A stretch of 64,000 bases of DNA from Prevotella scopos JCM 17725 (GTDB lineage Bacteria; Bacteroidota; Bacteroidia; Bacteroidales; Bacteroidaceae). Positions 15,957-40,090 of this stretch are shown piece after piece. The notes under the pieces are model-generated. The model ran no database searches. It saw nothing but the letters and a program-made list of their open reading frames with translations, and had not been told where the DNA came from. The stretch's first letter is position 1. Each line of letters opens with the position of its first letter. The translations under genes were made by a program, and so were the position numbers. The stretch covers positions 682,001 to 746,000 of the forward strand of contig NZ_CP072390.1 of assembly GCF_018127785.1 (NCBI RefSeq), given 5' to 3'.

Positions 15957-17637
15957 GGGAATTTCAGTTAATTCACTCCTGAACCTGCCAAGAGCATTCA
16001 AAAACTGGATTCTTTTTCTTGGAAAAGTTCCTAGAAAAAGAATTTGCAGTGTTTTCTGCTCAAAAATCTCAAATGTTGAGCCGTATGGGCATACCTGCCC
16101 CTTCCATACCTGCCTATGGATGGATATAAATCACCTTATCTTTTTATCAAGCCACCTTCTTCATGTCCCTGGCCATCAGCCTTGCGGCAAGAATGGCGGC
16201 ATTAGCCGTATGGATTCCGAAGAAGAGCAGTAATGTTTCGCTGAACATGTTACGTGCCTTGATGCGCCCAACGGCATAGTGCTGTTTCTGATTCCCGAAG
16301 CTGCCCTCCATTACAGTGGCCCTGAGGTTTCCAATAATCTTTCTCGCCGTCCTGAGACATTCTGATTCTTCTTTGGGCTTGGGACCTTTTCTGACGAAAC
16401 AGGTGGTTATGCCTTTTTCCGTACACATTGTTCGGTTGGCATTGTTGGCATATATGGAATCGGCACCGACACGCTTAACTTTGACCCCCGTCAGAGATTC
16501 CTGATACTCAACACATTGCTTAAGACGAACACCCTCGTTGAAAGCCTCAAAGCTGTGGTGCTCTATGAATGATATGCCGTCAATCTGTATGTTGTTGACC
16601 TTTGCCCCAAACTCCACACGCTTGTTTTCCTTGCCCCTGACAATGGGACGGAGGTAGGGACGGTCGATGCTGACAATACGGTGCCTGACTTCCTTGCCTG
16701 AAAACAAGGCTGACTGTTGGCGGAATACGGCACGTATGGCGGAGAGACGCTTTTCCTGTTCTGCCGACAGGCTGATACAAGGGCTATACAATTTGCAAAG
16801 ACGGTACCACTGAGAAAGAAGTTTGGAGAGCAGTTTCAGAAGTCTTCTCCTGAGCTTGCGCGTGGATGATGCTGTGTGCTTGCGCTGCTTGGCGTATGCA
16901 AGCCTAGCCTTCTCAACATCATTATACTTGCTCCTCGGAACACGCTCCGACAGGTGCTTACACTCGGAGACAAGCAGCTTGTGAAGCCAATGGCAACACT
17001 CCCAGAGTAGCTTGATGTCTGTCGGGAAGCGCAGGTAGCTCTCATAACAGGTTGCATCCGTCAGGCATAGGTCCTTGTCCTTGAGGCTGTCTTTCCATTT
17101 GGCGTACAATATGCCCTGAAGGCTGTCTATGTCAAGAAGACGGGCAAGACGGTTGCGTATGGCACTTACAATCTTTCCATCCCTAATGGGACAGGAAGGG
17201 TCTATCAGAGCGTCACAGAACATCTGCATGTGGATGCTTCCGTTAAGCATCTCTATCAAGCCATCGTCAGACAGACCTGTGTATGACTTGAGGAACATCA
17301 GGGCTATTTCTCCCTCACACGAAAAAAGAGGCTTTTTGCCCCGCTTGCTCTTATGGCTACGACTCGTACATGCTGCTGCCAACTCCTTAAGTGGGAGCTG
17401 GGAATGGATACGTCCAAGTTCGCTTTTTGCAAAGCTGTCACGATAGCTCTGTAAAAAATCAAACTCTGTAAAGGGCAAAGTTGGTGTTATATCAGAAATT
17501 TTTTGTATCTTCACGACGTTTTTTTTAAATTTTTCCCCCGATTCTGCCCGTGAAGGGTCGTTCGGGGGATTTTATGTAAAGGTACAAATAATATATTACA
17601 CTGACAAACAATTAGTTAGAAAAATTCTGAATATCCC
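15957..17637 (-). mobile_element. Insertion sequence, IS5/IS1182-like, copy 1
   Basis: A 1,681-bp element bounded by imperfect inverted ends, GGGAATTTCAG at the left and the complement GGGATATTCAG at the right. TAGTTTA is duplicated immediately outside both ends (15,950-15,956 and 17,638-17,644), a 7-bp target duplication proving simple insertion. A second nearly identical copy of identical length is at 38,283-39,963. It sits between lon and trmN6 without breaking either. Confidence 0.9.
16147..17514 (-). CDS. IS5/IS1182-like DDE transposase (copy 1)
   Basis: Transposase of 455 residues. The N-terminal DUF772-like region (SCEGEIALMFLKSYTGLSDD) is followed by an RNase H-like core. Candidate catalytic residues are Asp in LTDATCYES, Asp in VGADSIYANN and Glu in TVMEGSFGNQKQHY. 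The C-terminal RIKARNMFSETLLLFFGIHT matches the transposase DDE-domain pattern of the IS5/IS1182 superfamily. It appears intact and differs from the second copy by a single noticed residue (Glu versus Asp in NDV[E/D]KARL), so transposition is recent. Higher GC content than the flanking genes. Confidence 0.88.
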   Translation of the reverse strand: MKIQKISDITPTLPFTEFDFLQSYRDSFAKSELGRIHSQLPLKELAAACTSRSHKSKRGKKPLFSCEGEIALMFLKSYTGLSDDGLIEMLNGSIHMQMFCDALIDPSCPIRDGKIVSAIRNRLARLLDIDSLQGILYAKWKDSLKDKDLCLTDATCYESYLRFPTDIKLLWECCHWLHKLLVSECKHLSERVPRSKYNDVEKARLAYAKQRKHTASSTRKLRRRLLKLLSKLLSQWYRLCKLYSPCISLSAEQEKRLSAIRAVFRQQSALFSGKEVRHRIVSIDRPYLRPIVRGKENKRVEFGAKVNNIQIDGISFIEHHSFEAFNEGVRLKQCVEYQESLTGVKVKRVGADSIYANNANRTMCTEKGITTCFVRKGPKPKEESECLRTARKIIGNLRATVMEGSFGNQKQHYAVGRIKARNMFSETLLLFFGIHTANAAILAARLMARDMKKVA

Positions 17638-17855
17638 TAGTTTAAGTGGGATGTCTCTATGATTTCATCTTCCAGAAAGGTGAGTGAAGATTACATAAAA
17701 CCTGAGAATAGTTTTATTGTAAGTTGCTGTCACTTTTAACATTCCGTGCATGTTGCTGTGAATTAATAAGTTAAATGACTACAGGTAGTGACAGTGATGG
17801 CCGGAAAATAGGTTGTTTGTGGCGTCATAACACAGCAAATTAATTTATTATAATT

Positions 17856-19806: not shown

Positions 19807-20997
19807 ATGGGACAGTTACAAGACAAGTACAAAAGCTATCGCGAGCCGCAGAAGTTCATGGATGCTGGTGTTTATCCATACTTCCGTGAGATTACAAGTA
19901 AGCAAGGAACAGAGGTAACAGATATTGATGGCAATAAAATCCTTATGTTTGGTTCTAACGCCTATACTGGCTTACCTAATGATCCACGTGTGATTAGTGC
20001 TGCTCAAAAAGCTCTTGAAAAGTATGGTTCAGGTTGTGCTGGAAGTCGTTTCTTGAATGGAACGCTTGATCTCCACGTGCAGTTGGAGAAAGAACTTGCA
20101 GCATTTGAAGGTAAAGATGAGGCACTTGTTTTCTCTACAGGTTTTTCAGTAAATGCTGGTGTTCTCTCAGTTGTTGTAGGACGAGGAGATTATGTCATTT
20201 GTGACGATCGTGATCATGCAAGTATTGTTGATGGACGTCGTCTGAGCTTTGCCACCCAACTTCGTTATAAGCACAATGATATGGAAGATTTGGAGCGTGT
20301 CCTCCAGCGACTTCCTCATGACGCAGTTAAACTGATTGTTGTTGATGGAGTCTTCTCTATGGAAGGTGACTTAGCAAATCTACCTGCAATTGTTGAATTG
20401 AAACACAAATACAATTGTTCCATCATGGTTGATGAAGCACATGGTTTAGGTGTGTTCGGACGTCAGGGTAGGGGTGTTTGTGATCATTTTGGTTTGACAG
20501 ACGAGGTCGACCTTATTATGGGTACCTTCTCAAAGAGTTTGGCATCAATTGGTGGCTTTATTGCTGGTGATAAAGATACGATTAATTATTTGCGTCATAC
20601 TTGCCGCACTTATATCTTCTCAGCAAGTAATGCACCAGCTGCAACAGCAGCAGCTTTGGAAGCACTTCACATTATAGAACAGGAACCAGAACGCTTAGAA
20701 CAACTTTGGAAGGTTACAAATTATGCTTTGAAGCGATTTAGAGAAGAAGGTTTCGAGATTGGCGACACTGAAAGCCCAATTATTCCACTTTATGTTCGTG
20801 ATATTGAAAAGACCTTTATCGTGACTAAGTTTGCGTATGAGGCAGGCGTTTTTATTAATCCTGTAATTCCTCCAGCTTGTGCTCCACAAGATACCTTGGT
20901 ACGTTTTGCTTTGATGGCTACACATACCGAGGAACAGGTTGAGCGTGGTGTCCAGGCTTTAACTAAGATATTTAAGGAGCAGGGCATAATTAAATAA
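19807..20997 (+). CDS. spt: Serine palmitoyltransferase (alpha-oxoamine synthase family)
   Basis: PLP enzyme condensing serine with a fatty acyl-CoA, the first step of sphingolipid synthesis. Family features: FGSNAYTGLPNDPRV, SGCAGSRFLNG, CDDRDHASIVDG, VDEAHGLGVFG and GTFSKSLASIGG, where the Lys (about 243) binds PLP. Length 396 fits. KBL and BioF belong to the same family. The SPT call rests on the N-terminal YREPQKFMDAGVYPYFREI type start common in Bacteroidota SPT, and on the neighbouring lipid kinase. No biotin or threonine genes are nearby. Confidence 0.88.
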   Translation: MGQLQDKYKSYREPQKFMDAGVYPYFREITSKQGTEVTDIDGNKILMFGSNAYTGLPNDPRVISAAQKALEKYGSGCAGSRFLNGTLDLHVQLEKELAAFEGKDEALVFSTGFSVNAGVLSVVVGRGDYVICDDRDHASIVDGRRLSFATQLRYKHNDMEDLERVLQRLPHDAVKLIVVDGVFSMEGDLANLPAIVELKHKYNCSIMVDEAHGLGVFGRQGRGVCDHFGLTDEVDLIMGTFSKSLASIGGFIAGDKDTINYLRHTCRTYIFSASNAPAATAAALEALHIIEQEPERLEQLWKVTNYALKRFREEGFEIGDTESPIIPLYVRDIEKTFIVTKFAYEAGVFINPVIPPACAPQDTLVRFALMATHTEEQVERGVQALTKIFKEQGIIK

Positions 20998-26476: not shown

Positions 26477-28078
26477 CCTCAATTCCGCAGCATTATTCCT
26501 TGTGAGGTACTTTTATATATTGAAGTGACATTTTTGGGGTTTATCCATTGATATGGGGATTTTCTGGGGTTCTTGGTTCTTGCATAGACATGAAATCCCC
26601 CACCCAAACCAATGGGGAATATGATAACCACAAAGAAATACTGTTTATTCAAGGAAGACTTCAGAGTAGTAGGTTTTATTTGTATATAGGTTCAGAACGT
26701 TCTGCCTTCCAGTGCGCACCCATTTTGCTGGCACGCTGACAAAATGTAGGATAAAGGCTTTCAGCCTGCTTGTCTTTTTCAATGGCTTGACCTTTTCGCT
26801 GATATGACGGACGAGATAGATATATAAGTTCTTCAGCATGGCGGTAACCATCATGAAAACCATATTCTCAGCCATAAAGGAAAAGGGCAGATGCGACCAG
26901 CCAAAGTCATTGTTCTGTATATCGAAGTTCTTTTCGCTTGCTCCACGCTCATTATAAAATGTAATGATGTCTTTCTCGGTAGACATCCAGTTATTGGTGA
27001 GGATACAGCGGTATGTGTATATTACTCCGAACATATCCGTCTGTTGCTTGCCATCCTTGTCTTTCAAAGGACTACGCTGTACGACAAGCCTGTATGACTT
27101 ACCTTCGATGAGGTTGTCTATGCTGATGGAGGTGACATCGCATTTCTCGTAGCCAAGCTCAACGCCTTTCCATTCTTTCAACTGTCGGAAGTTCTCATAG
27201 CGACTGCCACAGTTGGCTGCACGTATATAGAACGTGTTGCAGCGCGACTCTACGGTTTGGATGATTTCCTTTGAGAACGACCCACAATCAGCACGGAAAC
27301 GCTCTATTACCACACCAAGTTCTGAGGTTACACGGTCCATAATGCGACAGAGCGTGTCTTCTTGATGGAATCTCACATTGGTGTTTCCGTCACGATTCTC
27401 ACCTCCGACTATGATTCCCCCGATGGAAGCCCAACCAGGGAAATAGCCAAAATCCAGCTTGTAGGAATACTTTGCATCGAACTTGTGGGCTGGAATAAAC
27501 TGATGGTCAAAGTCTAAGTCAACATGACTACCCACCTTTATAAGCCTCATCCTCCGTATCATTCGTAAAAGTAAGGTATTCAACTTCTGTGCCGTATTGA
27601 AACTATACGACTTGTCGGAGGTTTCGCTCTTATAGATAATGTTCTCTTCAGCAAGCTCCTTTAGTCCGCGCCCTACAGTGTCGGCACCGGGTAATAGCGT
27701 ATCAGGTCTCTGCTTGAACTGTCCTATAAGCACATTGATGTCCTCAAGGCATTCTCCACCACAAAGGTAACTGAAGAAGAGAGAGCCGAAAATACTTCCA
27801 TGGCTGAATGCTTTGCCGCTACTTCCACGTTTACCCAATACAGATTCGGTAAGTTTTTCAAAGCCTAACTTTGAGAAAACGTCCATAATGTGATAAATTC
27901 CTCCGAAAGAAGTGATATTCTCGTTTTTAATAGCTATCTTTGTCATGTCAGTTTTTTGCTTACTTGTTATGTTCGCAGCACCAAGATAGGTGAAATTTCT
28001 GACATATCCAAGTGTTTTGAGAACTTTGTTTCTCAGACACTTGGAGTTCTCACAAGAATTTATGCTGCGGAATTAAGG
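26477..28078 (-). mobile_element. Complete IS1380-family insertion sequence
   Basis: A 1,602-bp element whose ends are inverted copies of CCTYAATTCCGCAGCATNA, continuing imperfectly to CTTGTGAG (about 30 bp, few mismatches). Starting with CCT and having this length are usual for the IS1380 family. It carries one transposase. No target duplication is visible (AATAT on the left, ACCTA on the right), so a neighbour sequence was probably lost or rearranged. Confidence 0.82.
26645..27946 (-). CDS. IS1380-family transposase
   Basis: A 433-residue DDE transposase. Catalytic-region landmarks are DLDFDHQFIPAHKFDAK (about 144-160), RADCGSFSKE (about 216-225) and NERGASEKNFDIQNNDFGW with the Glu. The final third includes the helical MAENMVFMMVTAMLKN segment typical of the family. 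It looks intact. A truncated relative at 37,563 shares most of the middle, so two members of the same family lie on either side of the Druantia-like genes in the same orientation. Confidence 0.92.
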   Translation of the reverse strand: MTKIAIKNENITSFGGIYHIMDVFSKLGFEKLTESVLGKRGSSGKAFSHGSIFGSLFFSYLCGGECLEDINVLIGQFKQRPDTLLPGADTVGRGLKELAEENIIYKSETSDKSYSFNTAQKLNTLLLRMIRRMRLIKVGSHVDLDFDHQFIPAHKFDAKYSYKLDFGYFPGWASIGGIIVGGENRDGNTNVRFHQEDTLCRIMDRVTSELGVVIERFRADCGSFSKEIIQTVESRCNTFYIRAANCGSRYENFRQLKEWKGVELGYEKCDVTSISIDNLIEGKSYRLVVQRSPLKDKDGKQQTDMFGVIYTYRCILTNNWMSTEKDIITFYNERGASEKNFDIQNNDFGWSHLPFSFMAENMVFMMVTAMLKNLYIYLVRHISEKVKPLKKTSRLKAFILHFVSVPAKWVRTGRQNVLNLYTNKTYYSEVFLE

Positions 28079-28088
28079 ACCTAATATA

Positions 28089-28197
28089 TTTGCAGCACTA
28101 AGACCAGCTGAAATTTCTGACATTTCAAAATGTCTTGAAGACTTTGTTTTTCAGGCACTTGAATCTCTCAAAGATTTTACGCTACAGAATTAAGAGC
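28089..28197 (-). repeat. Relic right end of a second IS1380-like element
   Basis: About 110 bp that align at roughly 75% identity with the right end of the complete IS1380 element (27,971-28,078), including the same internal GAAATTTCTGACAT and terminal GAATTAAG blocks. It directly adjoins the complete element and ends 12 bp before the ATG of the next gene. A TATATTTG promoter-like element lies between the two at 28,085-28,092. Confidence 0.65.
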
Positions 28198-28209
28198 AAA
28201 GAAAAAGCT

Positions 28210-29664
28210 ATGGGTTATTTTGAAACTATCCTAACGGCTCACAACTTCGAAAAATGTCCAGAATATTTGTGGCAAATCCGAGTTACTGCTGAAGAGTATG
28301 CCAACCTGAAACAACTCTTAGCACGCCAAATCCATATTTACAATAGAAACTGTAGTAATCGTTTCATTACCGTTCGTAAGGAATGTGTCCTGTATATTGC
28401 AGAATTTTGGCGTAGGGAATATCATGAAGGTCCTCATAGTGTCCAAATGATACTTGACTCTTTGGGTATTTATGTTACTTCAGAACTACGTGATGAATTC
28501 TATGAGTCTGCTCAACGTGGTCTTAAAGCGTTAGACTTAGAACTCTTTGAGGGAAATGGGGGCAGAAGATACCTTGACTCCATGTTATATCAAGGTGGTT
28601 TGCCAATGAAGCTGGTAACAGGAAGTGAAAATGGTGGCGTATGGGACCGATTTACCCGTGGACTGGTAAACAGAAAAGTAGATTTTGAAGAACTTAATTT
28701 GGGAATAGTTGCTTCTCAAAGTAAGTGCTTGAAGGATTATTGTAACCAGCTGATTATTGGAGTTGAGTCAGCGCAATTCATGCTTATGCCATTCTATTGT
28801 CAGAATGAGCAAGATGTTTGGTATATATATTTGCAGGAACTTGCCAAACAAGAAAAGATCCGTCACCGTCAAATCCACCCCTACTCTCTTGGTTGGGAAT
28901 TCAGAATTGATACTGTAGAAAAGAAAATATATTCAAAGTACGTAGTTGAAGGCTACCAAAATCTTCCTGAGGCTTTTCTTATTGAGAACAGATTGGCCCA
29001 TGTACCTTTTTTTTCTGTTCAAGTCAGAAAGAACGGGCAAGCAGTTGACACATTCGATTATGTTAAAAACTTCTGTCGCTATCCGGTAGTCAGCAAGCAT
29101 CCATATGCTGATGGTGACAGTATATCCCTTTTCTTACATGAACAAGAGAAACCATATATTACTGATTACCTAGACACGAACATCCCACACTTGCTTTATC
29201 GTAAGAAAGATGGCAAGTATGAGTTAGGTAATCAAATCGGCAGGACAGATTCATTCCTGCTTATACCTAAGGATTGGTACATTGAAAATGAAACTTCATT
29301 TACTATTATTGATTATCAATGGGGTAACAGAATTATTCAGGGAATAGAGATTCCTTCTGATTTCATTGATAATATTATTGTTAAAGGAGCTGACGGTATT
29401 ATCACTTTTGGTATGGCTTCACCTCTCTACTGGACAGAGATGGCTACTTCTCCACTTTATATACCAGATGTGATAGAACCACTCTATAATGCGGAAAATA
29501 GTATTTTTTCTCTATGTTATGATACTGATAATGGTAAAAAAATACGAGGGAGATTAACGTTCAATTCCGCAACAAGCGGCAGACAGAATGGTCTGACAAA
29601 CCTTCTTATGGAGAAATATTTGCAAGAGCCGTTGATACTAATGGGAATTTTGTTACACCAATAA
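28210..29664 (+). CDS. DruH-like protein, N-terminal part (frame 1 before the A7 slip)
   Basis: No named domain recognised. It begins MGYFETILTAHNFEKCPEYLWQ and contains helical and beta-rich parts without signal peptide or membrane helices. The frame extends up to an ATG at 28,135, but that segment lies in the relic IS end, and a purine-rich AAAGAAAAAG stands before the 28,210 ATG. After the run of seven A at 29,536 the last 40 codons (from IRGRLTFNSATSG on) look like an out-of-frame tail. The -1 frame continues smoothly for 620 residues into the next gene, so natural product length is probably about 1,064. Position before a DruE-like helicase suggests the DruH role in a Druantia-type system. 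Confidence 0.75.
   Translation: MGYFETILTAHNFEKCPEYLWQIRVTAEEYANLKQLLARQIHIYNRNCSNRFITVRKECVLYIAEFWRREYHEGPHSVQMILDSLGIYVTSELRDEFYESAQRGLKALDLELFEGNGGRRYLDSMLYQGGLPMKLVTGSENGGVWDRFTRGLVNRKVDFEELNLGIVASQSKCLKDYCNQLIIGVESAQFMLMPFYCQNEQDVWYIYLQELAKQEKIRHRQIHPYSLGWEFRIDTVEKKIYSKYVVEGYQNLPEAFLIENRLAHVPFFSVQVRKNGQAVDTFDYVKNFCRYPVVSKHPYADGDSISLFLHEQEKPYITDYLDTNIPHLLYRKKDGKYELGNQIGRTDSFLLIPKDWYIENETSFTIIDYQWGNRIIQGIEIPSDFIDNIIVKGADGIITFGMASPLYWTEMATSPLYIPDVIEPLYNAENSIFSLCYDTDNGKKIRGRLTFNSATSGRQNGLTNLLMEKYLQEPLILMGILLHQ
29536..29542 (+). promoter_or_regulatory. A7 slippery site, probable -1 frameshift joining two frames
   Basis: Zero frame reads GGT AAA AAA ATA; slipping back one base gives AAA AAA AAT ACG AGG. 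The -1 frame is closed by TAA at 29,535-29,537, opens exactly at this run, and has no stop through 31,400. That is what a -1 event, or loss of one A from an A8 run, would produce. Confidence 0.7.
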
Positions 29665-29669
29665 AACTT

Positions 29670-31403
29670 ATGAACATTGGTAATGGATTTTCTGTAAGCT
29701 TACAACATGCAGATAAAGATACTTGTCAGATTAAAGTGACCTGGGATCACGGACATGTAACTACAAACGAAGGAGTCAAGAAGGCTAATGATGTTTGGGA
29801 GATAAAAAAAGAAGACTGTCCTGACCATAGGTGTATACATTTCACATTAGTTCCTGAAGGTAACAGTTTGAATCAATTTACAATCTCTGTCAAGGCTCCG
29901 TTTAAGGATTTTTCCATTATAAACATATATGGAGATAATGTCATAAATGACAGTTGGGTGCCATACACTGATATTGACAAATACCAATACCACATTGTAG
30001 GACAAAATGTCAAGCAATATTCTTTTGGAGATGTCGTCCGAGAACTCAGATGGATGAACGACAAACTTTACATTTTTGAAAAAGGAAAAGCAATTAAGCC
30101 AATTCCATACGAGGGAAACCTGCTTATATTGTTTGATTCTCGTGAAAATCTGCGGTCAAAACTGGAAAGAACTTCAATGAATATGCTTAATGCAGAGCTT
30201 AAAGTATCTTTTTCTCTTAGCAATAGTAACAGTTTGGAATTCAGTATAAAAGATTCGCCATATCGACCAAAGCAAATAGGTAATGGGCGACTGATAATTA
30301 CAGGAAACAATCATATTCCTGTTAAATTTACAGGTGTACTTAAATTATTGAAATTAGAGGAACCAGAATTGGAACCAATAGAAATATCATTTGATGAAGA
30401 AAACGGTTCCTACACGCTTCCTGAGGATATTCGTCCTTGGGGAAAAACTATCGTAATTGGTCGTACAAGGGGACGTATCTGTCCTGCCCTTGTAGATTTG
30501 ACAAGAGAGATGGATGGAGCTTTTAGAGCAAACAACAGGGAAAATGCCATAAGCTCTATAAAAGAAAAATTAACAAAATCCACTCTTGGCGATAATTTGT
30601 GGAAAAGAATTCTGGGGTGGTTTGACCGATCTCAAAAAGAAGATATTCCTGCAAGTTCTATTCTGGAATTATACTGTACAGCACAAGACTATAAAGCTTT
30701 GATATGTCTGGTTTTTCAATTATTCGTTAAATGTACGGATGACAATGAGCGTGAAATCTTGAAGGAAAAGCTTAAAATATTCAGTAGTGACCTTGCTTTT
30801 CAATGGTATTGGCTTCAACCATATCTTTCCGGCATCTTTAGTCAACTTAACACCTTTATCAGTGACCCTATGGTGCCAGCAGTGCAAGATATTTACATTA
30901 AATGGTCCATGACTTATAAAGGAGAAGATATGATAAAGCTTTTAAGTGCTTTGAATGATCCTGAACAATATATGAGTAACATTGTTCAATGCTTCAATGA
31001 CGTCTTATCTCTCTTTACAGATTGGCTGAAAGACCTTTGCGTTTCTTCACTTACTGAATCTTATGGAATTCCTTCAAATGATATTATTGTCGATTTAGCA
31101 GAAACCATTATTAAGATTCCAAAGAAAATATATCCCATAGAACTAAAGAAAGATGACTATATCGATTCAAATCAGGAATATCTTGGAGAAGAAGTTGCTT
31201 TATTCTTCAATACTTATAATGAACCAAACAGATCTGGTAATGAACAATGGTTGTTTAAACGAGTCAATGCGGTCGTAGCCCATATCAAAAAGGGAGTAGA
31301 TTTGTTTACGGTAAAGGATGAGATACGAAGAAGTATCATATTTTGTAGCAAATCGTCAAATCCCCATTTTATAATTGCACTAAACAATAAATTATCTCAT
31401 TGA
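29670..31403 (+). CDS. DruH-like protein, C-terminal part (frame 2 after the A7 slip)
   Basis: From its first ATG this frame encodes 577 residues, but it is open back to 29,538 and adds protein-like sequence (QTEWSDKPSYGEIFARAVDT) before the Met. I therefore read it as the second half of one roughly 1,064-residue protein. No named domain recognised; the first half is beta-rich and the second half helical (WFDRSQKEDIPASSILELY onward). The stop codon is one base before the helicase ATG, so translation is coupled. If translated on its own, its ATG has only a weak ribosome-binding site. Part of a Druantia-like operon by context. Confidence 0.75.
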   Translation: MNIGNGFSVSLQHADKDTCQIKVTWDHGHVTTNEGVKKANDVWEIKKEDCPDHRCIHFTLVPEGNSLNQFTISVKAPFKDFSIINIYGDNVINDSWVPYTDIDKYQYHIVGQNVKQYSFGDVVRELRWMNDKLYIFEKGKAIKPIPYEGNLLILFDSRENLRSKLERTSMNMLNAELKVSFSLSNSNSLEFSIKDSPYRPKQIGNGRLIITGNNHIPVKFTGVLKLLKLEEPELEPIEISFDEENGSYTLPEDIRPWGKTIVIGRTRGRICPALVDLTREMDGAFRANNRENAISSIKEKLTKSTLGDNLWKRILGWFDRSQKEDIPASSILELYCTAQDYKALICLVFQLFVKCTDDNEREILKEKLKIFSSDLAFQWYWLQPYLSGIFSQLNTFISDPMVPAVQDIYIKWSMTYKGEDMIKLLSALNDPEQYMSNIVQCFNDVLSLFTDWLKDLCVSSLTESYGIPSNDIIVDLAETIIKIPKKIYPIELKKDDYIDSNQEYLGEEVALFFNTYNEPNRSGNEQWLFKRVNAVVAHIKKGVDLFTVKDEIRRSIIFCSKSSNPHFIIALNNKLSH

Positions 31404-31404
31404 C

Positions 31405-34400
31405 ATGAAGTTTGAGAATTTCTATAAAGAATCAGAGGAAAACATGCGTTTAGCATTGCTTTCTCTTTGGACACCAGGAAACCATCCTATGCGTGCTGCC
31501 GTTAACGAGCTCTTTGACAGAGAACCATTATTGTCAGAACCTGTATTCCAAAGTACTTTCGGATGGGAACCTGCACCAGATGACAGCTGGAAAAAGGCTT
31601 TGAATCCGACAATCATCAGCAAACTTGGTATTGGAGTCAAGTATCCTCCATATAAACATCAGGCAGAGAGTTGGAAAAGTTTGGCTGAAGGAAAGAGTAT
31701 TGTCGTAACATCAGGTACTGGTTCAGGTAAAACCGAGTGCTTTATGTACCCTATTCTGAGTGACCTTTATGAGCAAGGACACACTAATGCCATAGAAGCT
31801 ATCTTTCTCTACCCTCTCAATGCCTTGATGGAAGATCAAAAGAAACGTCTATCTGAGTATTGTAAGGCTACCGGCTTACATTTTGCATTATACAATGGAG
31901 ACACTCCAGAACATCGTGCTGATGGTAGAGATGAAATTCTTCCAAATGAGATTGTAACCCGTGATGATATACGTGACCCAAATAACCAAGGAACACGCCC
32001 TGAAATTCTTCTGACAAACCCAAGTATGCTTGAGTATATACTTGTTCGTCAAAAAGATCAGCAAATGTTACAAGAATCAGCTAACAGACTTCGCTGGATT
32101 GTTATAGATGAAGCACATAGTTATTCCGGTTCTGCGGCTGTAGAACTCGCATATCAGATTAAAAGAGTACTTGAGGCTTTCGGTAGAACTCCAGAACAGG
32201 TACGATTTGCATGTACATCTGCTACGATTGGTGGTGACGAGGGTTCTCAGTCGCTTTCAGACTTCATCTCAACGGTTACAGGCCAGTCCGTTGAACGGAT
32301 TAAGGTTATCGGTGGTCAGCGTTTGGTTCGTCCTTTGGATAAGGACCAACTTGCCGTTGAACTTAAAGCAAATAATCTCCCTTCTGTTGATAATGTATTG
32401 TCTCTCCGTGACAAAATAAATAAGGTTTCTGGCATGACTCTTCAGCAGATGTGGGAACATCTATGCCCGGACACAACCTTTGACAGGGCTGATCTGATAC
32501 CAGCATTGCAGCTTCTGGATAGACTTTGCGAAATGTCCCAAGAAAAAACTCCTGTCCTGTCACTTAGAGCACATTATTTTATGCGTTCCATAAACGGACT
32601 TTATGCTTGTGCAAATGAAAACTGCGATAGTGCTAATCCTGCTTCACCGATTTATGGACACCTAACCACATACAAGGCATCAGTATGTCCAAAGTGTGGT
32701 GTACCATTACTTGAAATTGTACAATGTAAGCGATGTGGTGGTTTTGTGTTAATGGGCTGTAGTGACTTACAGACTCATAAGATTTCCCCTTGTGAAGACA
32801 CCGCTAACAGAGATGATTATTTCTCTATTGATCTTACCTCTGAGCAAGAAGAAGAGGATGAAATGGCCAGTTCAGGCAGTCCTGACATATTCTTTCTTAT
32901 GCCATACGAAAAGGAAAAGTTCTTTACTCCTGTTGCCAAAGCTCATTCTGTAACCATGAACATTGTGCATAATAGTACTGGAGCAATATTGGATGTTCAT
33001 GCTGACAGCAAAGGCACATGGGTCGAAGTCAGAAAAGATGACGGACATTCTTATTGCCCTGGATGCGGGAAATTAGCTCATGGGAAACGACTTAATTTAA
33101 AACACTTCCGTATTCCTATCAACTTTATCAACCAGACAATTTCACCTGTTTTCCTTCGAGAATGTGCTCATGAAGGGAACAGTTGGGGAAAGTATATCGC
33201 TTTTACAGATAGCCGCCAAGGAACCGCTATCTCTGCTAAAACGTTCAATATTAATGTTGAGCGTAATCAAAGTAATAAGAATATGCTGGAGAGACTTTCT
33301 CAAATACAAACAACAAGTCCATTAGATACTATTCCAGAACCTGTAAGGAATACTTTGACAGCAGAACAGATAGCCATGATATTGGCTAATGCCCCATCTT
33401 CTCCAGACGGAGTGTCTTTATATGATGTTTCAGAAGCAATATATAACCAAGCGATGTTTGACCATATATCAAATAATGATGGTGCAAAGAATAAGAATGC
33501 ATATAAGTGCGCACTGATAAGAGGCGTTATAGGCAGACGTCCAGCGTATGAAACCAATGCAGAAACCATGGGCTTTATCTATCTGGACTATCCTGATTTG
33601 AAGACTGCAAAAGTTCCTTCTGTATTGGCAGATTATGCAGACCAAAACGGGATAACTATCAAAGACCAGGATTGGCAGGATTATTTGAAACTCGCCATAG
33701 ATTATGTAATGAGGCTGGGCAACCACATTCAGCCTTTGGCAGATGATGAGAAGAAATATGTCCGTGAAAGCAATTTAAGCACTCCAATTGCAGCCTCTGA
33801 TGACCAAAGAGAAAAAATCAAACGTTGGCCCTCTGTAAAGATTGTCGAGGGAGGAAAGGTTTTTGAACATCAATCACGACTTGTTGTACTTCTCTGTGCA
33901 GGGTTAGGTATACATACGGTTGAGAAATTACAGGCTAATGTAAGAATCGTTGATGCAATTATCACCGAAGCATGGAATACTTTAATTGAAAAGAAAGTCT
34001 TTACCAAGGTTAAAGCTGACGATACAGACGGGTATAATAATCCACGCTTCTATCCGGATAACAAATATGTAGATTGCTATTTCCTTGACTTATCGGGTAA
34101 AGAAGGAAATAATGTCTGCAAAGTTAAGAGATTGCAAGATGCATGGGTATGTCCTGTCTCACATCAGCTTTTAGATACCACATTTTGCGGATACAGCCCA
34201 TTGATCACAGGAAGAATCTGTGAAAGGTTGTTTGTTAAATACAAATGTAACGAAAGTAAGATAACCATGCCTTCACGACCTAAAGACAATGAAGAGGTCG
34301 TAAACTGGCAGGAAAATGATGAAAACATCAAGGCTCTGAAGGCTGCTGGCCTTTGGACTGACCGCCATAAGTATGCTTATCACAAAACTCCTATTTATAT

Positions 34401-37400
34401 TGCTGCAGAACACTCTGCACAGCAATCAAAACAATTACTCCGTGATTACACCAGATCATTTAGTCAAAAGACCCCTTTGATTAATGTTCTTCACTGTTCC
34501 ACTACTATGGAAATGGGCGTGGACATTGGTGACATTGACGTTGTATTGATGGATACCGTACCTCCTACTGCAGCCAACTATCTACAGCGTGTAGGCCGTG
34601 CTGGCCGTATGGGCCAAAGCAAGGCTATTGCATTCTCGTTATGCAATAATACACCAGTTGGACAGCACGCATTCGCAAATCCGATGTGGGCATTGCAGAC
34701 TACAAACCATATGATTAAGGTTCGTCCGAGTCAGACTGTCATACAACGACATATCAATTCGTTCTTCTTCAGACAGTTTATATGTGACAACGGATCCGGA
34801 ATTCAGGTAATTGTTTCAATTGACGAGTTTATGACTTCCACCTGTAACACATTTATCCAATTCTTGGATGATATGAGCACAAATCAAGCAGAAGAGTGTA
34901 AATTCAAAAAAGTTTTTGGAAAAAACATCGCATATACCATAAATGTCACAAAGGAAACAATACAAGCAATTCAGAAAGAATACAATACTGTAATTGATGA
35001 ACTTAATGCAGCCTTTGTTCAGTTCCAAAATGATACAAGACGACAGATAGCTATTAGCAATCAGATAAGAAAAACCAAGTCGGAAGGTTTGCTAAACTAC
35101 CTGTCTGACCACCAGTTTATACCAAATGCAAATATGCCAACAGGTGTAGTAACATTTGATTTCACTGATAGAGACCAGTCTGTAAAACTACATCGCCTGT
35201 ACGATAATGTTGATAAATTACAAAACAGAATAGCTGCAGAGTCCGATAGTATAGAGAAATTTAACCTACAGAACGAACTGAATAAGGTTCATAAAGAGAT
35301 TACCAATCTTCGTCGTGCAACAACGGCTTCGCGTGATATTCATACAGCTCTCGATGAATATGCACCAGAGCAGACTGTTGTTGTAAACGAAAAAAACTAT
35401 GTTTCTGCTGGAATCAAACTACTTGGTGCCTATAATGAAGAAACACAAACCAAAGCAATCTATCATTGCATACATTGCGGTAAGACTGAATATAAAAGGA
35501 TTCTACAAAAAGGTGCATTATGTTCCTGCGGTAATCCATATCATAGCATTATTGATAAAGATCATGGCTCATACACTCTTGCTTATGAACCTATAGGTTT
35601 CTGTACTGATCAGAATGTAGATAGTTCACGTGAAGAAAAGACCGTAAAACATTACTATGACATTAGACCTGTCTTGTTGAAAACAGATTGGAGTAAACAT
35701 AAGGACATAAATATGTGCGAGCTTATCACCAGTGGTGAAACTGGTAACATTTTATTCTATAATGTTGGTAATGGACATGGATTTGCTTTCTGTAAGCGCT
35801 GTGGACGAGCATCTGTTGAGTATACCGCCATAACTTCAAAAGTAAGTGTACCTTATGCGGTCAAGCCTGGACATAAGAGACTTTGGGGTGATGGCTGTGA
35901 AGCCAACGATAATGATATTGCACGTCACGTTGTATTAACAGGTAATCATCCTACTTGCTATACAGTGCTACGTTTCAAGAAGGATGCAGTATCTTCAAAA
36001 TTTGAAAACGATGAGCAACTTGTATACTCTCTTGGTGTTGTCCTTAAACGTGCATTAGCTTTAAGCGAAGGAATAGATGAGGGCGAAGTTGACTTTGGCA
36101 TCAAACAAGAACTTGACGCCTGGGTTCTCTTCATCTTTGATACAGCAAAAGGAGGATGCGGTTATTCACTGAAATTGATGAATCCTGTTCTTTGCCAGGA
36201 AATTTTTGACCTTGCAAGACAAGCACTTGAAGAAACAACATGTAACTGTCATATAGAAGGTGGCGCTTGTGCAAGATGTTTGATTGACCGTAACAATTAT
36301 CGTTATTCATACCTTTTATCAAAGGCAAAGGCTCTTGATTGGCTGAACCATCAAAAGAACAAAGCCATTGGACTACCTGCTCAGGTAAAGGCTTCAAGCC
36401 CTTCAGCAAGAGTAGTTTGTCAACCCTTGAAGGATATAGTAAAACTGTCGGTCACGGATCCTGAAGTCAAGAAGATAACCCTGTGCATTTCTGACCTGAC
36501 AGATGATAATGTTGTTACGGATTGGTCAAGTGTCCGTTCAGAGATGGGAAAACACATCAAAACAGGAGTATCAAATGGTAAAAACATTTCCCTTGTAGTT
36601 GAGTATCATCCTGAACTTCATAATTCACTTACAGAGAAACTTCCATTCATCAATTTGAAGGATAAATTTCCTGATTGTGAAGTCTCGATTGTCAAGGATC
36701 TAGGTGAAATGAAGACTGCTGTTATTGTTGAGCGTAACACCGGGGTACTCAGGTACTTCACAGACAAAGACTCTGTCTTGTCGTTTTCTAATAACTGGGG
36801 AAAGAATTGTCATTATGTCTTTGTGGATAATAATCGCGTAACATTCAATGAACAGAAAGAACCAACCTATGTAATGTCTCCATCACAAGTTGTACGTGAA
36901 GGTCTTACACACGCAAGAACATTCCAGATTAAGAATTATTTCTCTACTGCAATTGCACCTTTCCTGCTGAATCAGCAGGACACAGATATGCTCGTTGAAG
37001 TCTTGAAAGGTAAACATGTTAATATTACATTTAGTGATATGTATGTAAACAGTGCCTTGGCAAGTTTGATGCTTGTTTACCTCATCAAAGAGATGAAGCA
37101 ACTCTTTGGTTATACGATCGATAGTATAACCTTACAATTAGACTCTCCAAAGAGAAAATGTTATAACGACAGGTACAACGAATGGACTCCTATTAATATG
37201 AATTTCTCCTGTAAAGAGGATGCTGACGAATATACGGATAATTTGTTTATGAATGTATTGGGTATAGAGCCAGAACATTCATTTAATGACGCAAACCACC
37301 ATCGTTGGCTGAAAATAGAAACAAAAGACGGAGGTCGTGTTGAAATCAGGCCTGACCACGGAATTAGTGGTGGTTATAAATCTGACAGCAAGTATTTGAA

Positions 37401-37488
37401 CCTTGACTCTCTCAATGGTTCTGTAAATGTCGTAAGAAATAACGAGGATGTACTCTATTATGTAATTATTAAAAAAAGTGACGCCTAA
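31405..37488 (+). CDS. DruE-like giant DEAH-box helicase with DUF1998-type C terminus
   Basis: A 2,027-residue superfamily 2 helicase. Motifs in order: YKHQAESW (Q-like), Walker A SGTGSGKTE (about 103-111), DEAH (235-238), SAT (272-274), and the second RecA lobe far downstream with STTMEMGVDIGDIDVVL and QRVGRAGRMG (about 1,060-1,068). Between the lobes are paired-Cys zinc sites (CPKCG...CKRCGG, CPGCG). The C-terminal region has DTAKGGCGYS then CNC...CARCLID (about 1,580-1,630), the four-Cys cluster of DUF1998 helicases such as MrfA. About 350 further residues follow. Size and architecture match DruE, the constant subunit of Druantia anti-phage systems. With one upstream partner the closest layout is the two-gene type. 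Other DUF1998 helicases (DISARM, DpdJ-like) are smaller or differently accompanied. Confidence 0.88.
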   Translation: MKFENFYKESEENMRLALLSLWTPGNHPMRAAVNELFDREPLLSEPVFQSTFGWEPAPDDSWKKALNPTIISKLGIGVKYPPYKHQAESWKSLAEGKSIVVTSGTGSGKTECFMYPILSDLYEQGHTNAIEAIFLYPLNALMEDQKKRLSEYCKATGLHFALYNGDTPEHRADGRDEILPNEIVTRDDIRDPNNQGTRPEILLTNPSMLEYILVRQKDQQMLQESANRLRWIVIDEAHSYSGSAAVELAYQIKRVLEAFGRTPEQVRFACTSATIGGDEGSQSLSDFISTVTGQSVERIKVIGGQRLVRPLDKDQLAVELKANNLPSVDNVLSLRDKINKVSGMTLQQMWEHLCPDTTFDRADLIPALQLLDRLCEMSQEKTPVLSLRAHYFMRSINGLYACANENCDSANPASPIYGHLTTYKASVCPKCGVPLLEIVQCKRCGGFVLMGCSDLQTHKISPCEDTANRDDYFSIDLTSEQEEEDEMASSGSPDIFFLMPYEKEKFFTPVAKAHSVTMNIVHNSTGAILDVHADSKGTWVEVRKDDGHSYCPGCGKLAHGKRLNLKHFRIPINFINQTISPVFLRECAHEGNSWGKYIAFTDSRQGTAISAKTFNINVERNQSNKNMLERLSQIQTTSPLDTIPEPVRNTLTAEQIAMILANAPSSPDGVSLYDVSEAIYNQAMFDHISNNDGAKNKNAYKCALIRGVIGRRPAYETNAETMGFIYLDYPDLKTAKVPSVLADYADQNGITIKDQDWQDYLKLAIDYVMRLGNHIQPLADDEKKYVRESNLSTPIAASDDQREKIKRWPSVKIVEGGKVFEHQSRLVVLLCAGLGIHTVEKLQANVRIVDAIITEAWNTLIEKKVFTKVKADDTDGYNNPRFYPDNKYVDCYFLDLSGKEGNNVCKVKRLQDAWVCPVSHQLLDTTFCGYSPLITGRICERLFVKYKCNESKITMPSRPKDNEEVVNWQENDENIKALKAAGLWTDRHKYAYHKTPIYIAAEHSAQQSKQLLRDYTRSFSQKTPLINVLHCSTTMEMGVDIGDIDVVLMDTVPPTAANYLQRVGRAGRMGQSKAIAFSLCNNTPVGQHAFANPMWALQTTNHMIKVRPSQTVIQRHINSFFFRQFICDNGSGIQVIVSIDEFMTSTCNTFIQFLDDMSTNQAEECKFKKVFGKNIAYTINVTKETIQAIQKEYNTVIDELNAAFVQFQNDTRRQIAISNQIRKTKSEGLLNYLSDHQFIPNANMPTGVVTFDFTDRDQSVKLHRLYDNVDKLQNRIAAESDSIEKFNLQNELNKVHKEITNLRRATTASRDIHTALDEYAPEQTVVVNEKNYVSAGIKLLGAYNEETQTKAIYHCIHCGKTEYKRILQKGALCSCGNPYHSIIDKDHGSYTLAYEPIGFCTDQNVDSSREEKTVKHYYDIRPVLLKTDWSKHKDINMCELITSGETGNILFYNVGNGHGFAFCKRCGRASVEYTAITSKVSVPYAVKPGHKRLWGDGCEANDNDIARHVVLTGNHPTCYTVLRFKKDAVSSKFENDEQLVYSLGVVLKRALALSEGIDEGEVDFGIKQELDAWVLFIFDTAKGGCGYSLKLMNPVLCQEIFDLARQALEETTCNCHIEGGACARCLIDRNNYRYSYLLSKAKALDWLNHQKNKAIGLPAQVKASSPSARVVCQPLKDIVKLSVTDPEVKKITLCISDLTDDNVVTDWSSVRSEMGKHIKTGVSNGKNISLVVEYHPELHNSLTEKLPFINLKDKFPDCEVSIVKDLGEMKTAVIVERNTGVLRYFTDKDSVLSFSNNWGKNCHYVFVDNNRVTFNEQKEPTYVMSPSQVVREGLTHARTFQIKNYFSTAIAPFLLNQQDTDMLVEVLKGKHVNITFSDMYVNSALASLMLVYLIKEMKQLFGYTIDSITLQLDSPKRKCYNDRYNEWTPINMNFSCKEDADEYTDNLFMNVLGIEPEHSFNDANHHRWLKIETKDGGRVEIRPDHGISGGYKSDSKYLNLDSLNGSVNVVRNNEDVLYYVIIKKSDA

Positions 37489-37562
37489 TACTGACAGAAG
37501 AGTAATATCTGTTTCATATAGAGTTCAGCCCAAGTTTAAGGGAAAATGTTTATCAAAAAAAT

Positions 37563-38282
37563 CTATTTTTTTTCGAGGAATATTAATTGGTTCTTCAGCA
37601 TGGCGGTAACCATCATGAAAACCATATTCTCAGCCATAAAGGAAAAGGGCAGATGTGACCAGCCGAAGTCATTGTTCTGTATGTCGAAGTTCTTTTCACT
37701 TGCCCCACGCTCATTATAGAATGTAATGATGTCCTTCTCGGTAGACACCCAGTCATTGGTGAGGATACAGCGGTATGTGTATATTACTCCGAACATATCC
37801 GTCTGTTGCTTGCCATCCTTGTCTTTCAAAGGACTACGCTGTACGACAAGTCTGTATGACTTTCCTTCTATCAAGCTGTCCATGCTGATGGATGTGACAT
37901 CGCATTTCTCATAGCCAATCTCAACGTTTTTCCATTCCTTCAACTGTTGGAAATTCTCGTAGCGACTGCCGCAGTTGGCAGCGCGAATGTAGAACGTGTT
38001 GCAGCGCTGCTCTACGGTTTGTATGATTTCCTTTGAGAACGACCCGCAGTCAGCACGGAAACGCTCTATTACCACACCAAGTTCTGAGGTTACATGGTCC
38101 ATAATGCGACGGAGCGTGTCTTCTTGATGGTATCTCACATTGGTGTTTCCGTCACGGTTCTCACCTCCGACTATGATTCCCCCAATGGAAGCCCAACCAA
38201 GGAAATAGCCAAAGTCCTGCTTGTAAGAATACTTTGCATCGAACTTGTGGGTTGGAATAAACTGGTGGTCAAAGTCTAAGTC
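37563..38282 (-). pseudogene. Truncated IS1380-family transposase
   Basis: Closely related to the transposase at 26,645 from DLDFDHQ (its residue about 144) through MAENMVFMMVTAMLKN, then breaking off near 37,590. About 143 N-terminal and about 60 C-terminal residues are missing. The 5' cut coincides exactly with the left end of the IS5-like copy 2 at 38,283; the 3' cut leads into unrelated AT-rich sequence. It cannot be functional. Confidence 0.9.
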
Positions 38283-39963
38283 GGGAATTTCAGTTAATTC
38301 ACTCCTGAACCTGCCAAGAGCATTCAAAAACTGGATTCTTTTTCTTGGAAAAGTTCCTAGAAAAAGAATTTGCAGTGTTTTCTGCTCAAAAATCTCAAAT
38401 GTTGAGCCGTATGGGCATACCTGCCCCTTCCATACCTGCCTATGGATGGATATAAATCACCTTATCTTTTTATCAAGCCACCTTCTTCATGTCCCTGGCC
38501 ATCAGCCTTGCGGCAAGAATGGCGGCATTAGCCGTATGGATTCCGAAGAAGAGCAGTAATGTTTCGCTGAACATGTTACGTGCCTTGATGCGCCCAACGG
38601 CATAGTGCTGTTTCTGATTCCCGAAGCTGCCCTCCATTACAGTGGCCCTGAGGTTTCCAATAATCTTTCTCGCCGTCCTGAGACATTCTGATTCTTCTTT
38701 GGGCTTGGGACCTTTTCTGACGAAACAGGTGGTTATGCCTTTTTCCGTACACATTGTTCGGTTGGCATTGTTGGCATATATGGAATCGGCACCGACACGC
38801 TTAACTTTGACCCCCGTCAGAGATTCCTGATACTCAACACATTGCTTAAGACGAACACCCTCGTTGAAAGCCTCAAAGCTGTGGTGCTCTATGAATGATA
38901 TGCCGTCAATCTGTATGTTGTTGACCTTTGCCCCAAACTCCACACGCTTGTTTTCCTTGCCCCTGACAATGGGACGGAGGTAGGGACGGTCGATGCTGAC
39001 AATACGGTGCCTGACTTCCTTGCCTGAAAACAAGGCTGACTGTTGGCGGAATACGGCACGTATGGCGGAGAGACGCTTTTCCTGTTCTGCCGACAGGCTG
39101 ATACAAGGGCTATACAATTTGCAAAGACGGTACCACTGAGAAAGAAGTTTGGAGAGCAGTTTCAGAAGTCTTCTCCTGAGCTTGCGCGTGGATGATGCTG
39201 TGTGCTTGCGCTGCTTGGCGTATGCAAGCCTAGCCTTGTCAACATCATTATACTTGCTCCTCGGAACACGCTCCGACAGGTGCTTACACTCGGAGACGAG
39301 CAGCTTGTGAAGCCAATGGCAACACTCCCAGAGTAGCTTGATGTCTGTCGGGAAGCGCAGGTAGCTCTCATAACAGGTCGCATCCGTCAGGCATAGGTCC
39401 TTGTCCTTGAGGCTGTCTTTCCATTTGGCGTACAATATGCCCTGAAGGCTGTCTATGTCAAGAAGACGGGCAAGACGGTTGCGTATGGCGCTTACAATCT
39501 TTCCATCCCTGATGGGACAGGAAGGGTCTATCAGAGCGTCACAGAACATCTGCATGTGGATGCTTCCGTTAAGCATCTCTATCAAGCCATCGTCAGACAG
39601 ACCTGTGTATGACTTGAGGAACATCAGGGCTATTTCTCCCTCACACGAAAAAAGAGGCTTTTTGCCCCGCTTGCTCTTATGGCTACGACTCGTACATGCT
39701 GCTGCCAACTCCTTAAGTGGGAGCTGGGAATGGATACGTCCAAGTTCGCTTTTTGCAAAGCTGTCACGATAGCTCTGTAAAAAATCAAACTCTGTAAAGG
39801 GCAAAGTTGGTGTTATATCAGAAATTTTTTGTATCTTCACGACGTTTTTTTTAAATTTTTCCCCCGATTCTGCCCGTGAAGGGTCGTTCGGGGGATTTTA
39901 TGTAAAGGTACAAATAATATATTACACTGACAAACAATTAGTTAGAAAAATTCTGAATATCCC
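38283..39963 (-). mobile_element. Insertion sequence, IS5/IS1182-like, copy 2
   Basis: Same 1,681-bp length and ends as copy 1. Here the flanks differ (TAAGTC on the left, TATATAATA on the right), so there is no target duplication. The left neighbour is a transposase fragment whose missing N-terminal part is not found on the right. This points to a deletion or recombination that used this element as one edge. Confidence 0.88.
38473..39840 (-). CDS. IS5/IS1182-like DDE transposase (copy 2)
   Basis: Essentially the same 455-residue protein as copy 1, with Asp in place of Glu in NDVDKARL and a handful of silent base changes. All candidate catalytic residues are retained (LTDATCYES, VGADSIYANN, TVMEGSFGNQ), so it is probably active. 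The near identity means the two copies separated recently, and they offer a 1.7-kb direct homology in the same orientation flanking 20.6 kb that includes trmN6, spt, a tRNA cluster and ssb. Confidence 0.9.
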   Translation of the reverse strand: MKIQKISDITPTLPFTEFDFLQSYRDSFAKSELGRIHSQLPLKELAAACTSRSHKSKRGKKPLFSCEGEIALMFLKSYTGLSDDGLIEMLNGSIHMQMFCDALIDPSCPIRDGKIVSAIRNRLARLLDIDSLQGILYAKWKDSLKDKDLCLTDATCYESYLRFPTDIKLLWECCHWLHKLLVSECKHLSERVPRSKYNDVDKARLAYAKQRKHTASSTRKLRRRLLKLLSKLLSQWYRLCKLYSPCISLSAEQEKRLSAIRAVFRQQSALFSGKEVRHRIVSIDRPYLRPIVRGKENKRVEFGAKVNNIQIDGISFIEHHSFEAFNEGVRLKQCVEYQESLTGVKVKRVGADSIYANNANRTMCTEKGITTCFVRKGPKPKEESECLRTARKIIGNLRATVMEGSFGNQKQHYAVGRIKARNMFSETLLLFFGIHTANAAILAARLMARDMKKVA

Positions 39964-40090
39964 TATATAATAATAATTTCCTACTGTGGAAATATTTATT
40001 AATCAATGATTGGTATCTTTTTAATTTGCCTTTTGTGTGTGTGTTCACTAGCATTTCTCTATTGAGACATTATAATTTATAAGAACATTA

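What the first reader, a model, noticed from the sequence alone, without database searches (positions are those of the whole stretch)
29530..29680. A defence gene is split in two exactly at a seven-A slippery run
The first frame (28,210-29,664) and second frame (29,670-31,403) join perfectly by a -1 shift at A7 (29,536-29,542). The -1 frame has a stop at 29,535, opens at the run, stays open for 620 codons and gives protein-like sequence before its first ATG (QTEWSDKPSYGEIFARAVDT). Meanwhile the zero frame ends after 40 codons. The result is one protein of about 1,064 residues. Explanations are programmed frameshifting, RNA polymerase slippage, phase variation by loss of one A from A8 (an on/off switch for a costly defence system), a fixed mutation, or an assembly error. 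The first three would be new control of a Druantia-type system.
Basis: partly seen in the sequence, partly recalled or inferred. Interest (0 to 1): 0.85.

Follow-up and report, generated by a model that had tools for sequence, protein, structure and literature searches.

The report
Broken phage-defence gene, probably no switch
A phage-defence gene in a Prevotella-like bacterium reads as two pieces because a short run of A's is one base short; close relatives carry the gene whole, and an indispensable gene in the same genome record is broken in the same way, so this is most likely a sequencing slip or an ordinary recent mutation rather than a new kind of gene control.

Summary
The split is really in the sequence: the first frame (28,210-29,664) and a -1 frame meet at A7 (29,536-29,542), and a 99.3%-identical relative puts the joint exactly there. 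The gene is druH of a Druantia type III pair; druE (31,405-37,488) is intact. It is not a natural two-gene layout: druH is one ORF in 4 of 4 named relatives, and none of 101 short or partial database forms ends or starts at this joint. The A-run lies in a variable loop and is not conserved (KKN in 1 of 36 rows). The same record has single-copy murG split by the same -1 step at a short A-run, while 19 of 19 relatives have it whole, so the assembly very probably carries one-base errors of this kind. My odds: sequencing error 0.50, real recent loss of function 0.38, reversible switch 0.06, programmed slippage 0.04, natural two-gene layout 0.02. Reads across 29,536 would decide. The pair lies in an IS1380-type-bordered island 98.3% identical to one in P. 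jejuni, although a housekeeping gene is only 84% identical: recent horizontal transfer.

The parts
28210..29664 (+). druH, first frame: about 444 homologous codons and then about 40 off-frame codons to TAA
   Evidence: (seven DruH3 models, best E 2.2e-15, residues 19-168 matched)
29536..29542 (+). A7, the place where the frame changes; the P. jejuni copy has A8 then C
29538..31403 (+). druH, rest of the gene in the -1 frame (open from after the stop at 29,535; first ATG 29,670)
31405..37488 (+). druE, intact, 2,027 aa; DEAD helicase, helicase C-terminal and MZB domains
   Evidence: (DruE3, 2422.5 bits, nearly full length)
26477..28078 (-). left border: IS1380-type insertion sequence (transposase 26,645-27,946, Pfam DDE_Tnp_1_4), inverted ends at both sides
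37563..38282 (-). right border: remnant of a second IS1380-type copy, cut off at 38,282 by another insertion sequence
38283..39965 (-). other insertion sequence, 99.7% identical to 15,957-17,639

Best explanation
The window holds a horizontally acquired Druantia type III pair whose druH is a single gene in relatives. The A7 is most likely a one-base-short reading of an A-run in this assembly (sequencing or assembly error); the strain itself then carries an uninterrupted druH beside its intact druE, and the joint has no regulatory meaning. Shown: the split and its place, whole druH in relatives, the lack of conservation of the run, and another -1 break at an A-run in single-copy murG of the same record. 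Inferred: that murG cannot really be broken (recalled: it is essential), and that this particular break is an error too.
For: 4 of 4 named relatives have druH as one ORF of 1,064-1,089 codons; the nearest copy is 99.3% identical and longer by one base at the site. murG is split in this record: its halves match murG positions 2-69 and 71-352 in different frames, it is the only murG match in the genome at E 1e-20, and 19 of 19 relatives have it whole. Four of five followed-up breaks need a -1 step, druH and murG among them. After the joint, differences from P. jejuni are 8 synonymous to 3 non-synonymous (P 0.002 against neutrality), so the second part has been under selection for most of the separation: the break is an artefact or very young. 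In the survey PMC3711429 (passages) singleton frame breaks supported by BLAST are expected to be mostly sequencing errors.
Against: The genome is rated 99.88% complete with 0.16% contamination, and murG is the only plainly indispensable gene that I saw broken in about 2.06 of 3.30 Mb (sorted by eye). 132 A or T runs of seven or more lie inside long ORFs of 1.264 Mb, so run errors are sporadic, not systematic. One of five breaks is +1. Shortened DruH forms are common in metagenomes, which raises the chance that a real lesion occurred.
Confidence: 0.5

Rival explanations
1. Real, recent loss of function: slippage during replication removed one A, druH is a young pseudogene in this strain, and the system is off while druE stays intact.
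For: A-runs are natural slip sites. PMC13316683 section 2.2 (read) reports that DruH alone inhibits growth of M. smegmatis, that DruE neutralises this, and that both are needed for defence, so losing druH first is harmless. Short DruH forms in the database end at many different points, often with off-frame or unrelated residues.
Against: Selection is seen on the part after the joint, so the loss would have to be very young; the same record has a break in murG that very probably cannot be real. Some of the short database forms will be contig ends or assembly faults.
Confidence: 0.38
2. Phase variation: the run switches between A7 (off) and A8 (on), an on/off switch for a costly defence gene.
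For: Two close copies differ in run length at this site, and DruH has a reported cost.
Against: Only one copy of each state was seen, in two species, with a substitution next to the run as well. The run is short and not conserved. No population data could be had: plasmids, phages and viral contigs gave no match and metagenome contigs could not be scanned.
Confidence: 0.06
3. Programmed -1 ribosomal frameshifting or RNA polymerase slippage at the run makes a full-length DruH at some level.
For: The heptamers T_AAA_AAA and AAA_AAA_A stand in the zero frame and are on the list of A-rich heptamers in PMC3711429 (passages). RNA downstream folds slightly better than shuffles (z -1.6 to -2.0).
Against: Relatives have the gene in one frame and the site is not conserved. 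In the T_AAA_AAA slip the first codon would re-pair with TAA, a poor match. The fold differs from shuffles only weakly, and one of its stems is broken by a substitution in P. jejuni. The survey gives eight or more as usual for transcriptional slippage (it also argues for one dnaX case with seven).
Confidence: 0.04
4. Two natural genes with ends at 29,664 and 29,670.
For: The stop and the ATG are five bases apart, which would allow re-initiation.
Against: The first would end in about 40 non-homologous codons, and the cut lies inside a beta-domain. Among 101 short or partial forms none starts at residue 488 or ends at 445; the nearest starts, 434 and 449, are fragments that also lack the C-terminus.
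Confidence: 0.02

Closest known systems
Druantia type III (druH-druE) anti-phage defence
   Same: Adjacent druH and druE; DruE3 model matched over nearly its whole length; DruH of the usual size (about 1,064 aa) in intact relatives with the N-terminal match to DruH3 models.
   Different: druH is interrupted in this record. The Bacteroidales DruH proteins match PADLOC's DruH3 models only in about 150-180 N-terminal residues.
Programmed -1 frameshift genes (dnaX, insertion-sequence transposases)
   Same: A -1 step at an A-run.
   Different: No conserved site and no frame-shifted homologues at the same place.
Homopolymer phase-variable genes
   Same: The two nearest copies differ by one base at a run.
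   Different: Short A-run, only one copy of each state, no evidence of switching.

Membership tests
Druantia type III | DruE of the type III kind | tested here: met
   DruE3 PDLC00036, 2422.5 bits, residues 1-2024 on profile 3-2022 of 2023.
Druantia type III | DruH next to DruE | tested here: met
   druH pieces directly upstream on the same strand; DruH3 models match N-terminal residues 19-168 only, best E 2.2e-15. The second piece alone hits no PADLOC model.
Druantia type III | uninterrupted DruH | tested here: not met
   frame broken at A7 in this record; whole in 4 of 4 named relatives. Whether the strain itself is broken is open.
Druantia type III | defence against phages | not testable with these tools
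   Needs plaque assays.
Programmed -1 frameshifting | slip site conserved in related genes | tested here: not met
   KKN in 1 of 36 rows; no such A-run in the seven more distant relatives shown.
Programmed -1 frameshifting | several homologues broken at the same place | tested here: not met
   none of 101 short or partial forms ends at residue 445; nearest ends 432, 455, 457.
Programmed -1 frameshifting | stimulating RNA structure | tested here: inconclusive
   z -1.6 to -2.0 for three downstream stretches; one stem is not kept in P. jejuni.
Homopolymer phase variation | run kept in related genes | tested here: not met
   among the relatives read it is present only in the P. jejuni copy and P0001.
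Homopolymer phase variation | run length varies within a strain or species | not testable with these tools
   No reads and no second isolate of the species.

The most novel reading that the evidence does not exclude
The A7/A8 run is a natural switch or leak: DruH, harmful on its own, is held off or at a trace level by the one-base-short run while intact druE stays primed; slippage or reversion of the run gives the full sensor in a fraction of cells, so that a mobile Druantia island can spread in a mostly silent state.
Probability: 0.07. Interest if true: 0.7.

Novelty: not a real feature. Interest (0 to 1): 0.17.

Why it matters
Mostly a caution: a defence gene split at a homopolymer looks like regulation, and the useful test was whether an indispensable gene in the same record is broken in the same way. 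If the break is real, it is one more case of loss of a costly defence gene. The island is a clear case of an IS-bordered Druantia III shared between two species of the genus.

Tried and rejected

The split lpxA-like gene looked at first like a broken essential gene; one search showed an intact lpxA at C2:873,139, so it is supporting evidence only. The break at C2:910,422 is a two-part ISAon1 transposase, probably natural, and was dropped. A SusC-like candidate at C2:399,667-399,862 was not confirmed by Pfam in its first two parts and was dropped. A DUF7834 gene near C2:1,314,829 had only its second part scanned and was not counted. The other listed candidates (99, 63, which overlap in 464 kb, and 10, with different thresholds) were sorted by eye as gene overlaps, non-coding pairs or insertion-sequence remnants. 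That sorting is my judgement, no computed result, and true breaks may be among them.

Paper searches: Druantia with frameshift (4 papers) and Druantia with Prevotella (2 papers); by title and start of abstract none is about such control; I did not read them. Homopolymer phase variation and P. jejuni: listings only.

Full report
What is there. A7 lies at 29,536-29,542; the zero frame from ATG 28,210 ends at TAA 29,662-29,664; the -1 frame has a stop at 29,535 and its next one at 31,401. The next gene, 31,405-37,488, is intact. PADLOC calls the first piece DruH (seven DruH3 models, best E 2.2e-15, residues 19-168 only) and the next gene DruE3 (2422.5 bits, nearly full length); the second druH piece alone hits no model. 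This is a Druantia type III pair.

Whole elsewhere. A scan of one genome per species with the second piece gave four relatives. In all four, druH is one ORF, of 1,089, 1,064, 1,083 and 1,066 codons. The nearest, Prevotella jejuni DSM 26989 (L002), is 99.3% identical over druH, has 1,064 aa from the ATG, and differs at the site: A8 then C where the window has A7 then T. In 200 genomes of the genus, 12 have a match: the window's own, G071 with a whole druH in one frame, and ten with part matches (nine at about residues 402-662, two N-terminal; one genome has both). In 399 genomes of the family, 6 match at E 1e-60: the window's own and five others, each with its main match in one open frame (G402 residues 1-1064, G339 1-1062, G519 1-921, G235 and G261 3-681; open frames 856-1,100 codons). 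Some of these are probably the named records again; G402 matches L002 at 100%.

Protein database. Three searches (227 hits with 120 listed, 62, and 84) left 180 distinct proteins in hand: 79 full length, 101 short, partial or fused. None of the 101 ends at the joint (residue 445) or starts at the window's ATG (residue 488). The nearest ends are 429, 432, 455, 457 and 462. The nearest starts are 434 and 449; the second begins four residues past the joint, but both are fragments that also lack the C-terminus. P0001, 100% identical to L002's DruH in the table, stands for 154 sequences and has the same KKN residues; how many of its members are whole is not shown.

The site is not conserved. In an alignment of 36 full-length rows (31 of the 79 plus five loci; P0049 and L003 look like one sequence) residues 443-445 are KKN in 1 of 36, and the loop varies in length. 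At DNA level the seven more distant relatives shown have no such A-run. The AlphaFold model of the intact protein (mean pLDDT 85.7, pTM 0.73) puts the joint by the strands 442-446 and 450-455 of a beta-domain. The 42 residues between the joint and the ATG hold five invariant positions (K456, W461, G468, I470, R473), at a mean conservation that is average for the protein. Two fragments, or a restart at 29,670, are unlikely to give a working DruH (inference).

Is the break real? I tested the record itself: about 2.06 of the 3.30 Mb of the window's genome were scanned for genes that change frame in the middle (with different thresholds; 99, 63 and 10 listed pairs, sorted by eye). Five conserved non-transposon genes were kept: druH; murG near C2:245,026; a second lpxA-like gene at 566,937 (G6); a sulfatase at 936,903; and an outer-membrane barrel gene at 1,247,701 (T8). 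The barrel gene is the weakest, as its first part matched no model. murG is the telling one: its two parts match murG positions 2-69 and 71-352 in different frames, no other murG match lies in this genome at E 1e-20, and 19 of 19 relatives have it whole. A bacterium without MurG should not grow (recalled). Four of the five, druH and murG among them, need a -1 step; the barrel gene needs +1; murG's joint too is at a short A-run. So the record very probably holds at least one error of the type seen in druH.

How far this goes. If indispensable genes are about a tenth of the coding sequence (recalled estimate), one error among them predicts several elsewhere, enough to account for druH and the others; with a count of one this is rough. 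Against it: the genome is rated 99.88% complete, murG is the only plainly indispensable gene that I saw broken, and 132 A or T runs of seven or more lie inside long ORFs of 1.264 Mb. Differences from P. jejuni are 12 synonymous to 7 non-synonymous in druH (4 to 4 before the joint, 8 to 3 after it, P 0.002 against neutrality) and 14 to 15 in druE. The part after the joint has been under selection for most of the separation, so the break is an artefact or very young.

A real loss stays plausible. Short DruH forms in the database end at many points, often with a few off-frame or unrelated residues, and one tail (TIQQ) recurs at two positions, as if from one inserted element; some will be contig ends or assembly faults. 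PMC13316683 (abstract, outline and section 2.2 read) reports that DruH alone inhibits growth of M. smegmatis, that DruE neutralises this, and that both are needed for defence. PMC13192584, a preprint (passages), describes DruH as the likely sensor, with Ig-like domains, and DruE as the effector. Losing druH while keeping druE would fit both.

Why not control. The survey PMC3711429 (passages) takes a conserved site as a mark of programmed frameshifting; it is absent here. Heptamers that fit the zero frame, T_AAA_AAA and AAA_AAA_A, are on its list, and RNA downstream folds only slightly better than shuffles (z -1.6 to -2.0), with one stem not kept in P. jejuni; a small leak cannot be excluded. 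A switch by run length cannot be tested without reads: the only other close copy read at DNA level is in another species and differs by a neighbouring substitution too.

Setting. The island 26,477-38,282 is bordered by IS1380-type copies and matches P. jejuni at 98.3% over 11.8 kb, with no match of the flanks at E 1e-20. The housekeeping gene 19,807-20,997 is only 84% identical to P. jejuni's. The island was shared recently between species. In the window the right border copy is cut off by another insertion sequence, so the unit is probably no longer mobile by its own ends (inference).

Verdict. Observation confirmed. Most likely a sequencing run-length error (0.50) or a recent loss-of-function mutation (0.38) in an ordinary Druantia III pair; regulation at the run is unlikely (0.10 in all).

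Noticed in passing
26477-38282: The druHE pair lies between IS1380-type copies in an island 98.3% identical to one in P. jejuni with other flanks: an IS-bordered defence island shared between species.
   Followed up: partly
28085-28194: A 111-base repeat, 80% identical to the end of the left insertion sequence (27,968-28,077), lies directly upstream of the druH ATG; the promoter region of druH may be an old IS end.
   Followed up: no
L069:2137-3242 (G000:C2 near 245,026, outside the window): Single-copy murG is split by a -1 step at a short A-run in this record; 19 of 19 relatives have it whole.
   Followed up: yes
L045:4373-5163 (G000:C2 near 566,937, outside the window): A second lpxA-like gene is split at G6; the main lpxA is intact. 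Error, loss or a G-run switch cannot be told apart here.
   Followed up: partly
P0106, P0108, P0113, P0118, P0154 and P0129: DruH proteins of one lineage end early at many points; the tail TIQQ follows residue 791 in five proteins and residue 705 in one, as if the same element had been inserted at two places.
   Followed up: partly
   Followed up: no
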